DNA of 64,000 nt, taken from the IMG/VR virus record IMGVR_UViG_3300008108_000181, positions 1 through 64,000 of that record; one strand, given 5' to 3'. Shown one piece after another: positions 3,112 through 42,253 of the stretch. A program made the position numbers and the translations under genes. Below the pieces are notes generated by a model. It ran no database searches and was not told where the DNA came from. It saw nothing but the letters and a program-made list of their open reading frames with translations. This stretch comes from a virus. Numbering within the stretch: position 1 is the stretch's first letter; each line of letters begins with the position of its first letter.

Positions 3112-3279
3112 ATGGAAAAGCAAAAATATACTACAATTCAAATAAAAAAAGAAACCCATGAACTCTTACAAGATTATTGCAAGGAACATGGGTTTAAATT
3201 AAGTGGTTTAGTTGAATCTATGATTAAACAAAGAGTCTCACAACCAAAGCCTCAAAATGTGTTAAAGGTTAGAACTTAA
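3112..3279 (+). CDS. Small ribbon-helix-helix-like DNA-binding protein, opposite strand
   Basis: This 55-residue frame (start MEKQKYTTIQIKKETHELL, end VLKVRT) is the only convincing plus-strand gene here. The pattern fits a MetJ/Arc/CopG-type fold: a short N-terminal strand (YTTIQI), helix A (KETHELLQDYCKEHG), then a turn and helix B (LSGLVESMIKQRV). Similar small proteins occur in T4-like marine phages. It is convergent with the Mre11-Rad50 fusion and overlaps its 3' end by 11 bases. Its upstream region holds TAATTTTG at 3063-3070, a possible -7 box, but with no -33 partner. Its strand and fold suggest a regulator; no target is visible. Confidence is moderate because of the short length. Confidence 0.6.
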   Translation: MEKQKYTTIQIKKETHELLQDYCKEHGFKLSGLVESMIKQRVSQPKPQNVLKVRT

Positions 3280-6200
3280 CCTGAGAGAATCCATTTATCT
3301 TTTTAATCTCTACTAAATTATCTACTACATCTCGCATTGAATCGATGTGAGAAATAATCATCACAAAATCAAATTGTGTCTTTAAGTAGGTAAATAACAT
3401 AAATAAGGATTGTAGATTCTCACTATCCAAAGTACCGAACCCTTCATCGATTACCAAGAAATTTGGACGAGGTAGGTTACAAACATTAATTAGGGCAACT
3501 CGGATTGCAAGTCCACTAATAAATCTCTCCATACCACTACACATCTCCAAAGACCATTTTTGGTCACCATAAACAAGATATGCATTGATATTCTTACCAT
3601 CCATCTCTAACTGCATTCCGAACTCTACAATCTGACCTAAGATGTTATTTACTTCACCTTCAATCATTGGTAGGGCCTTTTCAATCAATTCATAAGAAAC
3701 ACCATCTTTACCAAGTGCATTCAAATAATAGTCAAATAACTTGGATTGGTCTTCCAGTTCTCTAACCTCTTTGATTCGAGTCTCTATTGTTTCTTTTTGA
3801 TTTTGAAGAGCAGAAATCTTACCATTTAGTTTTAGAATCTGAGAATTTAGTTTAGTCAAATTATCTTTAACAACTTTTAACTTATCCCTAACATCGGTGA
3901 TTTCTTCTCTAATTTCTCTATTTTTCTTGATTTGTTCCTCATTCTTGTAATACTCATCAATCAGTTGTTGTTGTTGATTAATTTGAGATTCCAATTTAAC
4001 TTCTTCGGTTTCCTTGGTGGAAAGTTGATTATGTAACTGAGAAAGTTCTCTATCAATCTTATCTTCTTTTTCTTTCGCTTCTTTAAGATTTTCCCAATCT
4101 TGAACCAATCCTTTAGTTTGATTGATAATATCAACCAATCCATTTAATTGAGTAGTAAAATCTTCTACTTGAATTTTTCCTTCCACAATAGAAAAATTTA
4201 CTCGCTTCATTTCTTCAAAAATGGTTTGTGAGTTTTCTATACACACCTCACATTTTTCATTGTATTTATGAGAATCCAAGTGTTCTTTTTGAGAATTTAA
4301 TGATTCTAATTTGATGTTTATTTTTTCAATTGCCGATTCGATTTTGGAAATATTTTGTTTTGTCTCGGTAATTTTATTGATTGCATCTTTTAATTCATCT
4401 TCATCATATCCATCAATGATTTCTTCTAAAGTTACTTGTAATTCTTCACGATGGGTAATTCTTTCCTGAATTGCACCTTTTGATGATTTTACTTCATCTA
4501 TTTTATCTTGAAGAATTTTTAATCTACTTTCTAATTCATCAATCGAGACACCACTATCAGAATTTAATTTTACAATTTTCTCGTTTAACTTAATGATTTG
4601 TTTGTTTAAATTATCTTCTTCATCTTTTAATGAAGTTTGGTATATTTCTAATAATTTAAACTCATTTTTATCAGTTTTAAGAGTTGTATCAATCTCTGCT
4701 AATTTTGTAGTAAAATCATCTGATTTAAATTTTCTGATAAGTGTTGCATTATCTCTATTCTCATCTGATGCCAAATTATACAATTTATCAAATATATCCA
4801 CACCAATAAATTGAGATAAAATCTCCTTTCTTTCTGATTGTGATTTATCAATGAAGAGAGCATTGTTTCCTTGCAGAGAAAGAGTAGTTAGAACAAAATC
4901 CTCAAACTTACCCAAATACTTTTCAATATTTTCGTTGGTTTCTCTTCGTTGTTCTCCATTTAAGGATTCGGCAATCCCATTATCTTCTCTCCAAAAATTC
5001 ACATCTACTTTAACTGCAGTTTGTTTTCGGACATACTTTGCAGTTCGTTCAATAAAATAATCAACACCATCAATTTCAAAGTTAAACTTACAATAAAAAT
5101 TATCTTTTTGATTATTTAGAATGTTTTTAGCAGAAGAAGTTCGTGAAGTTTTATCGTAGATACAAAACGAAAGAGCATCAAAAAGTGATGATTTACCACT
5201 TGCATTTGGTGCAAAGATACCCATGATACCTTGAGCTCTATCAAACCTTACTAAGTTTCCTTCACCATACGAGAACATATTTGAGAACTCTAATGTCTTA
5301 GGAGTCCACAAAATGTTTTCAGGTAGGTTATCTGAATTAATTTTAGTATTCAACTCTTTGTTGATTTCTGCAATCTTGTCCAACTCGGAATCCTCCAAAA
5401 GATATTGTCTTTCCAAGTAATCTCTGATTAGAGAGTTTTGGAAAGTTTCATCTTTAACATTCCCAACAATATTTTTATTTAGTTTGGTATTTGTTTTTAG
5501 TTGCCCAATAGTATCGGTTCTTGTTACGGTCACCTCATCTACCTTAAACATCTTTTTAAGTTCGGCAATACAAACTTTCATTTGAGATGGTTCGGTATTT
5601 GTAAATCGTAATCTTAAACGAGGTTGTCTTGGTAACTTGGTACCAAGTTCATCATATACCCATTGTGGAATCTTTCCATCAACAACATCAACTGTCAAGA
5701 ACCCATAATCGTTATGGAGATGATGTTCGGTAAAAGTTCGAGTTGGGACATCCCATAGGAGGTAACCGTGATTTTCCAACATCTCACCGTGGTTTTGTTG
5801 AACCATCGAACCTGCGTATGCAACCCACTCGTATCCTTCACCAAAAGTTTGTCTCTTGTGAATATCACCAAGAAGGGCTATATCAAATCCATCAAACATA
5901 TCCACTTGGAATGAATTTGAAGAAACGGTATAACCAATATCAGTTTGTGCTTTATTCACTGGACCGTGAAATAAACATATTTTGTTTTCTCCCTGAATAG
6001 TATCTCCCTTTGGCCAATTCGATTTATTATCAAGAATAGAATAAACCACAAAGGTTAAATTATGGATATTATACACTCCAGTATCACGAAGATAATGAAT
6101 ACGAGGGTTATTAAGGTTTTCCACAATTGGAGTAAGGACATCCAATCTATGTGAGTTATTTAAGTTACAATCGTGGTTACCCGTGATTAGAATTGTTTCT

Positions 6201-6427
6201 CTCAAATTAGAACACTCGGTTAGGAACCAAGAAATTTCTTGAATAAGTTCGGGAGACATTTCGGTTTTTGCATGGGCAATATCTCCTGCAATGTAAATTA
6301 CCGAATCTTCGATATTATCCTTTTCAACTTGTTCTAAGAATTGTTTGAATATCAATCGATATTCTTTATGTCTTTGCAAATTACGAATGTGTAAATCTGC
6401 TAAGTGATAGATTTTATTTATAACCAT
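3269..6427 (-). CDS. Fused Mre11/SbcD nuclease and Rad50/SbcC ATPase (gp47-gp46 type)
   Basis: One 1052-residue chain holds both halves of the recombination and repair nuclease that T4 makes as gp47 and gp46. Residues 1-330 are a calcineurin-like phosphoesterase: ADLH (10-13), GD (48-49), GNHD (83-86), FHGPV near 153 and GDIHKRQ (187-193). Residues 380 to the end are a Rad50-like ATPase: Walker A APNASGKSS (406-414), long coiled coils with a zinc hook CEVC (726-729), an ABC signature near CSGMERF (963-969), Walker B LVIDEGFG (991-998) and a switch His in IISHID. All catalytic residues appear intact. It is expected to process DNA ends in recombination-dependent replication. It is last in a run with primase and overlaps the preceding gene at ATG/TAA. 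In T4 and most relatives the two subunits are separate, so the fusion is notable. Confidence 0.93.
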   Translation of the reverse strand: MVINKIYHLADLHIRNLQRHKEYRLIFKQFLEQVEKDNIEDSVIYIAGDIAHAKTEMSPELIQEISWFLTECSNLRETILITGNHDCNLNNSHRLDVLTPIVENLNNPRIHYLRDTGVYNIHNLTFVVYSILDNKSNWPKGDTIQGENKICLFHGPVNKAQTDIGYTVSSNSFQVDMFDGFDIALLGDIHKRQTFGEGYEWVAYAGSMVQQNHGEMLENHGYLLWDVPTRTFTEHHLHNDYGFLTVDVVDGKIPQWVYDELGTKLPRQPRLRLRFTNTEPSQMKVCIAELKKMFKVDEVTVTRTDTIGQLKTNTKLNKNIVGNVKDETFQNSLIRDYLERQYLLEDSELDKIAEINKELNTKINSDNLPENILWTPKTLEFSNMFSYGEGNLVRFDRAQGIMGIFAPNASGKSSLFDALSFCIYDKTSRTSSAKNILNNQKDNFYCKFNFEIDGVDYFIERTAKYVRKQTAVKVDVNFWREDNGIAESLNGEQRRETNENIEKYLGKFEDFVLTTLSLQGNNALFIDKSQSERKEILSQFIGVDIFDKLYNLASDENRDNATLIRKFKSDDFTTKLAEIDTTLKTDKNEFKLLEIYQTSLKDEEDNLNKQIIKLNEKIVKLNSDSGVSIDELESRLKILQDKIDEVKSSKGAIQERITHREELQVTLEEIIDGYDEDELKDAINKITETKQNISKIESAIEKINIKLESLNSQKEHLDSHKYNEKCEVCIENSQTIFEEMKRVNFSIVEGKIQVEDFTTQLNGLVDIINQTKGLVQDWENLKEAKEKEDKIDRELSQLHNQLSTKETEEVKLESQINQQQQLIDEYYKNEEQIKKNREIREEITDVRDKLKVVKDNLTKLNSQILKLNGKISALQNQKETIETRIKEVRELEDQSKLFDYYLNALGKDGVSYELIEKALPMIEGEVNNILGQIVEFGMQLEMDGKNINAYLVYGDQKWSLEMCSGMERFISGLAIRVALINVCNLPRPNFLVIDEGFGTLDSENLQSLFMLFTYLKTQFDFVMIISHIDSMRDVVDNLVEIKKINGFSQVKF

Positions 6428-7515
6428 TATTTGTAATTGTTTCTATCGAAAATGAATTTTTGATTTTTTAATAATTTGAAATTAGAATTTATTTTATCTT
6501 TGTTTTGTATATAGTAATTATGTAAATCATCTATTGACATTTTATTAATAATATCTAAATTATTTTTATATTGTTGTAATATAGAATCACGAGTTAATTG
6601 TGGAGATAAATCAAATAAATCATCTGCAAGCCAAAATCCCAATTGTTTTAAGTATTGATTAATATAGGAACTACCCAAAATCAAAGGTATATTTTTTGAT
6701 ATAAAAGGATTCCACGATTTTTCACTTAAATGTATTTGGCCATCTAATAGTATAGCAGTTTCTAATATACAACTAACATATGATGTCATTGTAATTGGTA
6801 ATGGAGGCATTTCAACATTTATATCACCTTGATATGCCATTGTTTGTGTTGAATCCAATATGATAGGAATAGTTTTATTTCTGAATTCAAGTAGTTCTTC
6901 ATCTATGTCTGAATCGTTGTATGAACGAACGAACGAACTATAACCCAACCAAGAATCATTATTTAATCCTATATCATAAACATATTTAAAAATTTTTATT
7001 CTTTCTATTTTATCTACGCCAACTATCATACTTATTTTTTTCTGACGAAAATTTTTAATAAATTGATTTGTGACAAAATCAAACTCATTCCAATAATATT
7101 GAAGAGGTGCTCTATATCTAAAATAATTAAAATTATTTTTATCAGTATTAATATTAAACCTATTTGAAAAATAAGTAAGATTTTTTGTATCGGTAAAATC
7201 AGACCTATTATCATCATCTACTAAAAAAAATTTACATTGATATTTTTCTGCTATAGAATCTATTTTTTTCGTAAGTTTTTCAAATGAATCTAAATTAAAA
7301 TATGAGATATCTATTATTATTGAATCACCTGATTTAATATCTATCTTTGATAAGTGTGTATCAAAAAGTTCAATAAAATTATATCTCCAAGCATTTTGTT
7401 CTAAATCATCTGAATTTTCAATATCAATAAAATTAACTGGTTCTTTAAAATTTAATAAAGAATGCCATGCTGTATAAGACCCTCTTCTAATATGTATTGG
7501 AATTACATGAATCAT
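6427..7515 (-). CDS. Glycosyltransferase-like protein of the S/TEK family
   Basis: A 362-residue protein. The C-terminal third carries HLSEKSWNPF (262-271), then IPLILGSSY and a QLGFW segment. This resembles the S/T-E-K acceptor-loop motif and following PVVLG strand of GT10 (alpha-1,3-fucosyltransferase-like) and related phage glycosyltransferases. Three further proteins in this window share the same signature (49679-50830, 54689-55969, 63342-64000), so it belongs to an internal family. The N-terminus has alternating strands and helices compatible with a GT-B fold, but no nucleotide-sugar motif I can name. Its start overlaps the primase stop by four bases (ATGA), so it is co-transcribed with primase and the nuclease fusion, an odd setting for a sugar-transfer enzyme. 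The family link is what I see; the reaction is inference. Confidence 0.55.
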   Translation of the reverse strand: MIHVIPIHIRRGSYTAWHSLLNFKEPVNFIDIENSDDLEQNAWRYNFIELFDTHLSKIDIKSGDSIIIDISYFNLDSFEKLTKKIDSIAEKYQCKFFLVDDDNRSDFTDTKNLTYFSNRFNINTDKNNFNYFRYRAPLQYYWNEFDFVTNQFIKNFRQKKISMIVGVDKIERIKIFKYVYDIGLNNDSWLGYSSFVRSYNDSDIDEELLEFRNKTIPIILDSTQTMAYQGDINVEMPPLPITMTSYVSCILETAILLDGQIHLSEKSWNPFISKNIPLILGSSYINQYLKQLGFWLADDLFDLSPQLTRDSILQQYKNNLDIINKMSIDDLHNYYIQNKDKINSNFKLLKNQKFIFDRNNYK

Positions 7516-8453
7516 AAATTGAATAACTTTTGTTTTATCACATCATCAAAGTTAGTTTCTTTGGATTCTTTCAAAATTTGATTCACTTTCGAAAATCCCA
7601 TTTCACTTGCATCTTTATCTGATGGAATTATATTTCTAACTTTTATACCTTGGTTTCCCAATTGAACTACATAATGTAGAGCTTGTTGTTGAGCATCATT
7701 ATCGAGAAGAATGTTGATATGTTTTACACCCTTATCATATATATTTTCCATTAATTTTTTTGGAATAAATTTACCAAGAATCGGAATCACATTTCGTTTT
7801 ACCGAAATTGCATCAAAAACTCCTTCCACGATAGTAATAGGTTCGTTCCAATTTATTTGGTTTTCAAACATTATTACATTTTTGGATACTGGTGGATTTT
7901 TGTATTTGAACTTCTCCTCTTCGAAAACTGATCTTGCGATGAAGTAATTGAGTCGATTATCAACATCATAGGAAGGAATGATAATCCTACCAGAATAAAT
8001 ACCACTATCAACATACCCAATGTTATAACGGATAATATCTTCAGTAGTAATTCCACGAGAATCTGCATAGTGTTTTGCTTTTTTATAGGTTGGATTTAAC
8101 CCCTTTGGTGTATATAGCAATGATTTGAATTCATTTGGTAATCGTAATTCTATTTTTTCCTCATCGGAATCCTTAGAATACACTACATAATCATCACCAT
8201 AGATTTCATATAGTTTTTGTAATTTCTTCGAATCTACATGGAGTTTTCTTAATAAGGAAGTTATTCTCTTACCTTTGGAATCACATACCCAACAATGCCA
8301 TTGTTGAGTTTCTAAATTGATTTGTAGTTTCTTTTTGTGGTGATGACAAAATGGACAATGATGTGCTTGTTCATCTCCTTTCATAGAAGTTCCTGCACCT
8401 AATACTTCATCGAGTATATTAATTACGAGTGATTTATCTCTGATTGAGAGCAT
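7512..8453 (-). CDS. DNA primase, DnaG/T4 gp61 type
   Basis: A 313-residue primase. The N-terminal zinc ribbon uses CPFC (33-36) and CWVC (54-57). A primase core follows, then a TOPRIM domain with the acidic site IVEGVFDA (Glu210) and LLDNDAQQ (Asp251 and Asp253). It lays down RNA primers for lagging-strand synthesis and would work with the phage helicase, which is not in this window. It is short compared with bacterial DnaG (about 580-650 residues) because it lacks a helicase-binding C-terminal domain, as usual for phage primases. It is the first gene after a strong host-type promoter (8474-8506) and leads the operon that ends with the nuclease fusion. Confidence 0.92.
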   Translation of the reverse strand: MLSIRDKSLVINILDEVLGAGTSMKGDEQAHHCPFCHHHKKKLQINLETQQWHCWVCDSKGKRITSLLRKLHVDSKKLQKLYEIYGDDYVVYSKDSDEEKIELRLPNEFKSLLYTPKGLNPTYKKAKHYADSRGITTEDIIRYNIGYVDSGIYSGRIIIPSYDVDNRLNYFIARSVFEEEKFKYKNPPVSKNVIMFENQINWNEPITIVEGVFDAISVKRNVIPILGKFIPKKLMENIYDKGVKHINILLDNDAQQQALHYVVQLGNQGIKVRNIIPSDKDASEMGFSKVNQILKESKETNFDDVIKQKLFNL

Positions 8454-8473: not shown

Positions 8474-8506
8474 CAAATATACGAAAAAGTTTCCACTATA
8501 CCAAAT
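8474..8506 (-). promoter_or_regulatory. Host-type (early/middle) promoter for primase operon
   Basis: On the minus strand TTTGG, 19 bases, then TATATTTG (TTG-N20-TATATTTG). This fits the Bacteroidetes -33/-7 consensus TTG...TAnnTTTG. The -7 box ends 20 bases before the ATG at 8453, and the -33 box lies inside the 3' end of the upstream gene. Confidence 0.75.
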
Positions 8507-8933
8507 CTTTTCGAAAAAACTTTCCAAGAAGATTATCATTTAATGCTTTTTTATCACCAAGTACATCGTGTGCAAATTGTTCTTGCAATTCGTAATATGT
8601 AAGTGATTTGGTGTTGGGACAAAACCGAAGTATCCTTAATTCTAATTGGTCATTTTCTTTATCTTTAAACCAATCCTGAACTGTTTTGTTTGAAGAACGA
8701 TATGTTTTCCAATCTGATTCTTTGGTAATCATTTCGTATGTCTTTAACCGTTTATCAGTTAATGAAGCAATTTCTTTTTTACCAAACTTTCTTTTTCTAG
8801 TTGATAAAACATTTTTCTTTCCAATATAATACTCACCAGTTTTTCCATTTGTAATTTTATAAATAAAACCAATAGTACCATCTGGCATATCATTTAGTTC
8901 GGTTATAAAACTTCCTTTATATGTCCAACTCAT
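8496..8933 (-). CDS. GIY-YIG-like endonuclease-related phage protein
   Basis: About 145 residues from the chosen ATG (MSWTYKG). The N-terminal third reads GFIYKITNGKTGEYYIGKKN, close to the GIY-YIG nuclease core with its two tyrosines. A basic stretch (KRKFGKK) and a helix-rich tail with WKTYRSS and YYELQEQFA follow. Such proteins are common in T4-like phages and may be homing-type or repair-type nucleases. The catalytic Arg and Glu of true GIY-YIG enzymes could be R/K in the KRKFGKK region and a Glu in YELQEQ, but I cannot place them surely. A longer in-frame start at 8954 exists; the inner ATG matches the usual start of the family and cuts the overlap with the upstream gene to 17 bases. Confidence 0.65.
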   Translation of the reverse strand: MSWTYKGSFITELNDMPDGTIGFIYKITNGKTGEYYIGKKNVLSTRKRKFGKKEIASLTDKRLKTYEMITKESDWKTYRSSNKTVQDWFKDKENDQLELRILRFCPNTKSLTYYELQEQFAHDVLGDKKALNDNLLGKFFRKDLV

Positions 8934-9489
8934 AGTTAAAGATGCTAAAATCATTTTTGTATTTTTCCCTTACCCAATCTTTTATCCACTCTTCATTATA
9001 GTATTGTTTATATAATTTATGTGTGTTTAAATTTGGATGTTTTTCCCAATATATATTTCTATTTAAATGTGGAATTTCGGTTAATTGTAATCCAATTTGA
9101 TTTGATATATATTTTAAATCTTTGTTAAAATTTTCATATCTACCAACAAATGAAACTTTTTTATTTTCTCTTTGACCGTGGTGTAAATAATATTCTTGTG
9201 AAAAAAATAAAAAATCCAATGGTTCTATTGATTGTATAAAACTTGAAAATAGTTGAATATTTCCCTCTCGTTTTTTGTGTTCATACCAAGATGCAAGACG
9301 AGTAAAAGGATTTCGGACAAATGAAAAAATAAAATACCCATCAACATGCATCAATTGATTAAGTGTACCATGAACCATGATTTGCTCAGTCTCAGGTACA
9401 CTTAATAAAATTTTTGATATAGAATTACCACCTGTCTTGGGTATGTGAATAAAAGCCCACTTTTGGGTTCGATTGATAATTAACCCCAC
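8917..9489 (-). CDS. Sulfotransferase family 2-like protein
   Basis: A 190-residue protein with the two PAPS-binding signatures of carbohydrate sulfotransferases: the 5'-phosphosulfate loop FIHIPKTGGNS (13-23) and the 3'-phosphate motif FVRNPFTRLASWY (57-69). It should move sulfate from PAPS to a hydroxyl, probably on a glycan. The start is GTG; an in-frame stop lies just upstream, so no ATG alternative exists. Two more sulfotransferase-like genes occur at 51884-52621 and 53299-54042, but they are a different subtype. It probably shares the late transcript starting near 9972 with two small genes. The acceptor is unknown. Confidence 0.78.
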   Translation of the reverse strand: MGLIINRTQKWAFIHIPKTGGNSISKILLSVPETEQIMVHGTLNQLMHVDGYFIFSFVRNPFTRLASWYEHKKREGNIQLFSSFIQSIEPLDFLFFSQEYYLHHGQRENKKVSFVGRYENFNKDLKYISNQIGLQLTEIPHLNRNIYWEKHPNLNTHKLYKQYYNEEWIKDWVREKYKNDFSIFNYELDI

Positions 9490-41137: not shown

Positions 41138-42253
41138 TTAATTACTTAAAGGTGCTTTGATTTTATCATGTGATTGATAACCTATTAACTCAAAACAATC
41201 AGGTCTATAACTCATAATCTTTTGATCGAAAGTTTTTTCACCCAATCTTTCTTTTACCAATTGGTGTTGATACCAATTTCTTTCAGTTATTTGCACCTTT
41301 GGTAATTTAAACGGTTCTCTACTGATTTGTTCTTTCGCTTGTTCAATGTGGTTTGAATATAGATGCACATCTCCCAAATTACCAATCAATTCATCTGGTA
41401 CCATATTTACTTCCTTTGCAATAATCTCCAATAACAAACCATAGGAAGCTATGTTAAATGGTAATCCTAAAAATGTATCTACTGACCTCTGGTTCCACAT
41501 TAAAGAGATTGCTCGTTTAGGAACATTAGCATCATCACATACTTTATGCATTTCTACATCAGTATCTATTGTTTCATAACCACCTTCTTTAAGAGAATCG
41601 TATAATCTTGTACTTCCTTTAGAACCTAACTCTGTTCTTTCTTTAGCACTCAATTCTCTTGTATAAACTTGGAATCCATAATGACAAGGAGGTAAAACCA
41701 TTTCATCCAATTGACCCACATTCCAAGCAGATACCATTAATCTTCTACTATCGGGATTTGTTTTGAGTTCGTTGATTAGATTTGTGATTTGGTCTATTCC
41801 AATGAAGTATTCGTTACTAATTGAGTCGTGTTTTCTTTCACCCCAACTTCTCCATTGCTTACCATAGATTGGTCCTAAATCACCCCACTTCTTTGCAAAC
41901 TCATTATCGGTTTTAATATTATGGATGAATTGTTCTTTAGTGAATTGGTAACCAGAGTCAAGTGAAGTCTTGGAAGCGTAGTTCTTATAAGCATCACCAT
42001 CCCAAATGTGACAATCGTAATCCAATAAAAACTTAATGTTTGTACTACCTCTCAAAAACCATAGGAGTTCTGCCACCATAACATTCCACGCCATTTTCTT
42101 TGTGGTTAATAATGGGAATCCTTGTGACATTCGGTGACGGATTTGTCTACCAAATACTGAAATAGTTCCAGTACCTGTCCTATCCTTTTTCTCCACACCG
42201 TTATCAAGAATATCTTGTAGTAAGTCTTGGTATTTTGTATCTAATCTATTCAT
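41138..42253 (-). CDS. thyA: Thymidylate synthase ThyA
   Basis: A 371-residue ThyA, longer than the usual 264. Signature sites are intact: KKDRTGTGT (22-30), the RSTNIKFLL-type helix, WGDLGPIYGKQWR (123-135), SRRLMVSAWN (169-178) and the catalytic Cys190 in LPPCHYGFQ, then NQRSVDTFLGLPFNIASY and GDVHLYSNH. It makes dTMP from dUMP with methylene-tetrahydrofolate. An insertion of about 45 residues follows FQVYTREL and precedes the NQRSVD motif; it is charged and helix-rich and probably a surface elaboration. It works with the phage dCMP deaminase and deoxyribonucleotidase in thymidine supply. Confidence 0.95.
   Translation of the reverse strand: MNRLDTKYQDLLQDILDNGVEKKDRTGTGTISVFGRQIRHRMSQGFPLLTTKKMAWNVMVAELLWFLRGSTNIKFLLDYDCHIWDGDAYKNYASKTSLDSGYQFTKEQFIHNIKTDNEFAKKWGDLGPIYGKQWRSWGERKHDSISNEYFIGIDQITNLINELKTNPDSRRLMVSAWNVGQLDEMVLPPCHYGFQVYTRELSAKERTELGSKGSTRLYDSLKEGGYETIDTDVEMHKVCDDANVPKRAISLMWNQRSVDTFLGLPFNIASYGLLLEIIAKEVNMVPDELIGNLGDVHLYSNHIEQAKEQISREPFKLPKVQITERNWYQHQLVKERLGEKTFDQKIMSYRPDCFELIGYQSHDKIKAPLSN

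What the first reader, a model, noticed from the sequence alone, without database searches (positions are those of the whole stretch)
3269..6427. Single-chain Mre11-Rad50 nuclease-ATPase
A calcineurin-like nuclease and a Rad50-like ATPase with zinc hook are joined in one 1052-residue frame with all active-site motifs intact. In T4, bacteria and archaea the two proteins are separate and form a 2:2 complex. A covalent fusion fixes stoichiometry and could affect hook-mediated bridging.
Basis: partly seen in the sequence, partly recalled or inferred. Interest (0 to 1): 0.6.

Follow-up and report, generated by a model that had tools for sequence, protein, structure and literature searches.

The report
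Phage single-chain Mre11-Rad50 nuclease
A large aquatic bacterial virus encodes its DNA-end-processing nuclease and the matching ATPase as one long protein; this is real and shared by many related viruses, but such fusions have been known since 2011.

Summary
Window 3269-6427(-) is one uninterrupted 1052-aa frame: an Mre11-type phosphoesterase, capping domain and helix-loop-helix, a ~14-residue linker, then a Rad50 ATPase with coiled coil and CxxC zinc hook. It is not an artefact: of 103 distinct IMG/VR contigs fetched, 101 have both halves in one frame and the other two are cut by contig ends. dN/dS is 0.02-0.23 across both halves. ~280-kb relatives carry only the fused copy.

"All motifs intact" needs one correction: the GHxH motif is GDIH here, invariant in this clade.

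Novelty was overstated. Mre11/Rad50 fusions were described in 2011 (Mimivirus R555, Bacillus phage 0305phi8-36, plasmids, protists; PMC3175470). That paper also suggested that abundant aquatic R555 homologues lie in phages, some beside primases; I find a primase upstream at 106 of 112 loci with room. Isolated phages (Mel-JY01, pT24, PAU, MA9V-1) carry fused frames too.

Most likely it acts as a covalently linked gp46/gp47 (SbcCD), working as a dimer that resects and tethers DNA ends for recombination-dependent replication and repair; relatives carry a RecA-family recombinase. No activity was tested here. Verdict: ordinary function in an uncommon but known, abundant architecture.

The parts
3269..6427 (-). 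fused Mre11-Rad50 gene, 1052 aa
   Evidence: single ORF; Pfam and PHROG matches to both halves; same frame in 101 of 103 IMG/VR contigs
5678..6415 (-). Mre11-type phosphoesterase domain, residues 5-250
   Evidence: Metallophos match; model strands and helices
5858..5869 (-). motif V, GDIH (residues 187-190), Asp in place of the usual first His
   Evidence: invariant in A2; separate phage proteins and E. coli SbcD have His
5519..5665 (-). capping domain, residues 255-303
   Evidence: strand-helix-strand in the model
5348..5449 (-). helix-loop-helix expected to bind the coiled-coil root, residues 327-360
   Evidence: helices 327-342 and 346-360 in the model; role inferred from the T. maritima complex as described in PMC3175470
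5306..5347 (-). linker between the Mre11 and Rad50 parts, residues 361-374
   Evidence: model; no Met in residues 350-383 of the aligned relatives
4799..5305 (-). Rad50 N-lobe, residues 375-543, Walker A at 403-414, Q519
   Evidence: AAA_23 match; motif table
4265..4798 (-). coiled-coil arm 1, residues 544-721
   Evidence: helices in the model; arm length nearly constant in relatives
4241..4252 (-). zinc hook CEVC, residues 726-729
   Evidence: both Cys invariant in 27 relatives
3713..4240 (-). coiled-coil arm 2, residues 730-905
   Evidence: helices in the model
3272..3712 (-). Rad50 C-lobe, residues 906-1052: signature SGMER 964-968, Walker B 990-996, D-loop, H-loop
   Evidence: motif table; the model is low-confidence over most of this part
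6427..7515 (-). 362-aa ORF of unknown family, its stop overlapping the fusion's start (TAATG)
   Evidence: no Pfam match even at E 1
7512..8453 (-). DnaG-type DNA primase, conserved neighbour
   Evidence: phrog_47 E 2.1e-51; upstream of the fusion in 106 of 112 loci with room

Best explanation
The gene encodes the phage's Mre11-Rad50 (SbcCD, gp46/gp47-like) machine as one chain. Two chains most likely pair through the Mre11 part, the ATP-bound Rad50 heads and the zinc hook, giving the usual 2:2 complex from two polypeptides. The helix-loop-helix would sit on the root of its own chain's coiled coil, which the ~14-residue linker allows. ATP-driven opening and closing of the heads would let the nuclease cut or resect DNA ends and hairpins, supplying 3' ends to the phage RecA-family recombinase for recombination-dependent replication and break repair, with the hook tethering ends. 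Shown here: single frame, conservation, motifs, domain order, sole copy in large relatives, primase linkage, recombinase in large relatives. Inferred: dimerisation, nuclease activity, tethering, role in replication.
For: Both domains recognised, motifs and hook conserved, purifying selection in both halves, order and linker that fit the known complex (PMC3175470), fold matches to Mre11-Rad50 complexes 3qg5, 6s6v and 3tho, no second SbcD and no second full SbcC in ~280-kb relatives, a RecA-family gene in them, primase next door, and the analogous separate genes in SPO1, Lactobacillus phage 3-521 and T4.
Against: No biochemical data. The structure is a monomer model of modest confidence with a poor C-lobe. 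Motif V carries Asp instead of His. The window contig itself lacks a recombinase match, being a fragment.
Confidence: 0.82

Rival explanations
1. Assembly or sequencing artefact: two adjacent genes joined by a missed stop or frameshift.
For: None found; reads could not be examined.
Against: The same single frame is present in 101 of 103 IMG/VR contigs from many samples, the other two being cut by contig ends, and in isolate phages; low dN/dS on both sides of the junction.
Confidence: 0.01
2. The gene makes a separate Rad50 as well, from an internal start near the junction, so both fused and free subunits exist.
For: A TTG codon lies at about residue 373 in the window.
Against: No ribosome-binding site precedes it and the codon is not conserved. 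The only Met near the junction is M384, inside the first Rad50 strand, where a start would remove part of the ATPase.
Confidence: 0.05
3. The fusion has left the replication role and serves mainly another task, such as host DNA breakdown or counter-defence, with altered catalysis.
For: D188 in place of the first His of GHxH is fixed in the clade and present in most other fused phage proteins examined, while six separate phage nucleases and E. coli SbcD have His. Mimivirus R555 has the same change (PMC3175470).
Against: It is the only Mre11-Rad50 of its ~280-kb relatives and sits beside primase, as expected for the core replication role. Asp can also bind metal (general knowledge). Host DNA breakdown is already a role of T4 gp46/gp47 (note in the T4 record), so it would not exclude the replication role.
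Confidence: 0.07

Closest known systems
Mimivirus R555 and other Mre11/Rad50 fusions (Yoshida, Claverie and Ogata 2011, PMC3175470)
   Same: Mre11 first, Rad50 second, in one frame; linker of similar length; long coiled coil; the same two motif departures (His for the third Asp of GDxxD, Asp for the first His of GHxH); the paper's aquatic homologues were placed in phages, some near primases.
Fused proteins of isolate phages Microcystis Mel-JY01, Tenacibaculum pT24, Sphingomonas PAU, Chryseobacterium MA9V-1
   Same: Single frame with both halves and a CxxC hook; Mel-JY01 also has the primase upstream.
   Different: 36.9% identity to Mel-JY01. The others are far more divergent (1301-1326 aa), have Gln for H13 and no primase neighbour listed.
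T4 gp46/gp47 and SPO1 gp21.9/gp21.3
   Same: Same two activities by homology; phrog_77 and phrog_100 match; linked to primase in SPO1.
   Different: Separate genes, with GHxH in motif V and a shorter Rad50 (560 and 637 aa).
E. coli SbcCD and archaeal or Thermotoga Mre11-Rad50
   Same: Fold matches for both halves (3qg5, 6s6v, 3tho, 3auy).
   Different: Separate subunits; full-length SbcC alone is 1048 aa.

Membership tests
Mre11/Rad50 (SbcD/SbcC) fusion proteins, PMC3175470 | Mre11-like domain N-terminal to a Rad50-like domain in one frame | tested here: met
Mre11/Rad50 (SbcD/SbcC) fusion proteins, PMC3175470 | extra residues linking the end of Mre11 to the start of Rad50 (9-12 expected for ~28 A) | tested here: met
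   ~14 residues, 361-374, in the model
Mre11 / SbcD nuclease | metal-binding motifs DxH, GDxx(D/H), GNHD, H, GHxH | tested here: met
   all present except that GHxH is GDIH, a conserved Asp substitution
Rad50 / SbcC ATPase | Walker A, Q-loop, signature, Walker B, D-loop, H-loop split around a coiled coil | tested here: met
Rad50 / SbcC ATPase | CxxC zinc hook at the coil apex | tested here: met
   C726 and C729 invariant, between two arms of ~165 residues
Mre11-Rad50 complex | ATP-controlled dimeric nuclease that cuts DNA ends and hairpins | not testable with these tools
   needs purified protein

The most novel reading that the evidence does not exclude
An old, abundant aquatic phage lineage has relied only on a single-chain Mre11-Rad50 since one fusion event. 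With covalent linkage and the fixed His-to-Asp change in motif V, it works by a mechanism distinct from the two-gene enzyme, for example strictly in-cis nuclease-ATPase coupling.
Probability: 0.12. Interest if true: 0.45.

Novelty: new member of a known kind. Interest (0 to 1): 0.25.

Why it matters
It gives full-length, well-conserved phage versions of a fusion so far described mainly from Mimivirus, plasmids, a few cells and short marine reads, and it supports the 2011 suggestion that the abundant aquatic homologues belong to phages and sit beside primases. A single-chain enzyme with built-in stoichiometry could be a convenient object for structural work. It does not change the picture of what Mre11-Rad50 does.

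Tried and rejected
Artefact: rejected by independent contigs and isolates. Internal start for a free Rad50: no suitable Met or ribosome-binding site. Separate gp46 or gp47 in the same phages: none in the ~280-kb relatives apart from a weak 100-position coil match in G001 (E 1.5e-5); the 735-kb LR756501 does show a separate Rad50-like match besides its fusion, though that match contains stops. psbA as a cyanophage marker: absent, so the host stays unknown. Intron in L002: no Rfam match. No later paper on phage fusions was found in the open-access library.

Full report
WHAT IS THERE. Window 3269-6427(-) is one 1052-aa frame starting at ATG 6427; the upstream ORF's stop overlaps that ATG (TAATG). 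Pfam finds Metallophos at 5-191 and AAA_23 at 379-623; PHROG phrog_77, the SbcC-like subunit, matches 287-1051 with E 3.9e-59. Rad50 and SbcC structures are the best PDB sequence matches, with weak Mre11 matches for the N-terminal part. The window is part of an 81,196-base virus record.

NOT CHANCE OR ARTEFACT. A viral-contig scan with the protein alone gave 31 loci; all that reach both halves hold them in one frame, and L030 and L034 are cut by contig ends. The best 80 were kept, a choice that favours full-length copies. Over both scans 103 distinct contigs were fetched, 101 with both halves in one frame. Per-region dN/dS is 0.02-0.23 where it can be computed. Synonymous change in the 41-codon junction stretch is saturated in most pairs, but nonsynonymous change there stays at or below about 0.22.

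ANATOMY. The AlphaFold2 model from 27 rows (mean pLDDT 72.8, pTM 0.40) shows the phosphoesterase, capping domain (255-303), two-helix element (327-342, 346-360), a ~14-residue linker, Rad50 N-lobe from 375, coil, hook, coil and C-lobe. Most of the C-lobe is below pLDDT 50, so that part rests on sequence. Foldseek matches are Mre11-Rad50 complexes and other SMC heads; low whole-chain TM-scores are expected for a multi-domain coiled-coil chain. Active-site residues are invariant or nearly so, except that motif V is GDIH. Six separate phage SbcD proteins and E. coli SbcD have His there. Of the other fused phage proteins, Mel-JY01, LR756501, pT24 and MA9V-1 have Asp and PAU has His. C726 and C729 are invariant, and the arms keep nearly constant length (166-176 and 159-162 residues) down to ~40% identity. 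At 1.5 A per residue (general knowledge) that is about 25 nm.

CONTEXT. A DnaG-type primase lies upstream in 106 of 112 loci with room; the 112 include a few contigs fetched twice. Many relatives have it directly abutting the fusion; the window and some of its close relatives have a ~362-aa ORF of unknown family in between. SPO1 has SbcC then primase, and Lactobacillus phage 3-521 has SbcD, SbcC, a hypothetical gene, then primase, all as separate genes. Relatives of 276-289 kb carry one fused copy, no separate SbcD and a RecA-family protein. The window also has baseplate-wedge, helicase, thymidylate synthase and PhoH genes, so it is probably a large contractile-tailed phage. The host is unknown.

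WHAT IS KNOWN. Yoshida, Claverie and Ogata 2011 (PMC3175470) described the fusion in Mimivirus R555 and twelve other proteins, including Bacillus phage 0305phi8-36, plasmid-borne and bacterial proteins and eukaryotes. They argued that order and linker fit the known complex, and noted that R555-like marine sequences probably belong to phages, some next to primases related to SPO1 gp21.95. The present gene fits that description closely, including R555's two motif departures. Isolate phages hold fused frames too. SbcC and SbcD are near-universal in jumbo phages and treated as core recombination machinery (PMC7824862).

EVOLUTION. In a tree of 20 fused and 7 separate pairs the fused phage forms fall on one side of a branch, support 99/98. 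One fusion event is therefore not excluded for these phages, but sampling is thin, branches are long, and the 2011 paper inferred several origins overall.

MECHANISM. Most likely a covalent gp46/gp47 working as a dimer and feeding the phage recombinase. Shown: frame, motifs, conservation, domain order, neighbourhood. Inferred: dimerisation, nuclease and tethering activity, replication role.

VERDICT. Real and correctly identified; known architecture; modest interest.

Noticed in passing
L002 about 5680-6590 (LR756508, 484-kb phage): The fused gene is interrupted after the GDIH motif by ~0.9 kb holding an ORF with paired-Cys zinc-ribbon-like motifs, probably a homing element; no Rfam intron match.
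   Followed up: partly
L026 6001-8991: This relative lacks ~53 residues, in frame, covering much of the Mre11 capping domain, while both catalytic parts remain; real variant or assembly error not settled.
   Followed up: no
window 6427-7515: A 362-aa ORF of unknown family sits between primase and fusion in the window and some close relatives, while in many others the primase abuts the fusion directly; it looks like a cargo gene inserted in the operon.
   Followed up: partly
window 41138-42253: Thymidylate synthase of 371 aa matched by Pfam in two stretches, which suggests an insertion inside the gene.
   Followed up: no
window 8496-9489: A SegE-type GIY-YIG endonuclease and an overlapping sulfotransferase-family ORF lie just upstream of the primase and are conserved in close relatives.
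   Followed up: no
LR756501 (735-kb phage), record 278537-281305 and 670999-672753: This phage has a fused copy and a second Rad50-like match elsewhere that contains stop codons, so both architectures may coexist or an alternative code or decay may be involved.
   Followed up: no
L036, L038, L039 (genome contigs): MAG contigs labelled as archaeal or bacterial carry the fusion with the phage-type primase upstream; probably phage contigs binned with cells.
   Followed up: partly
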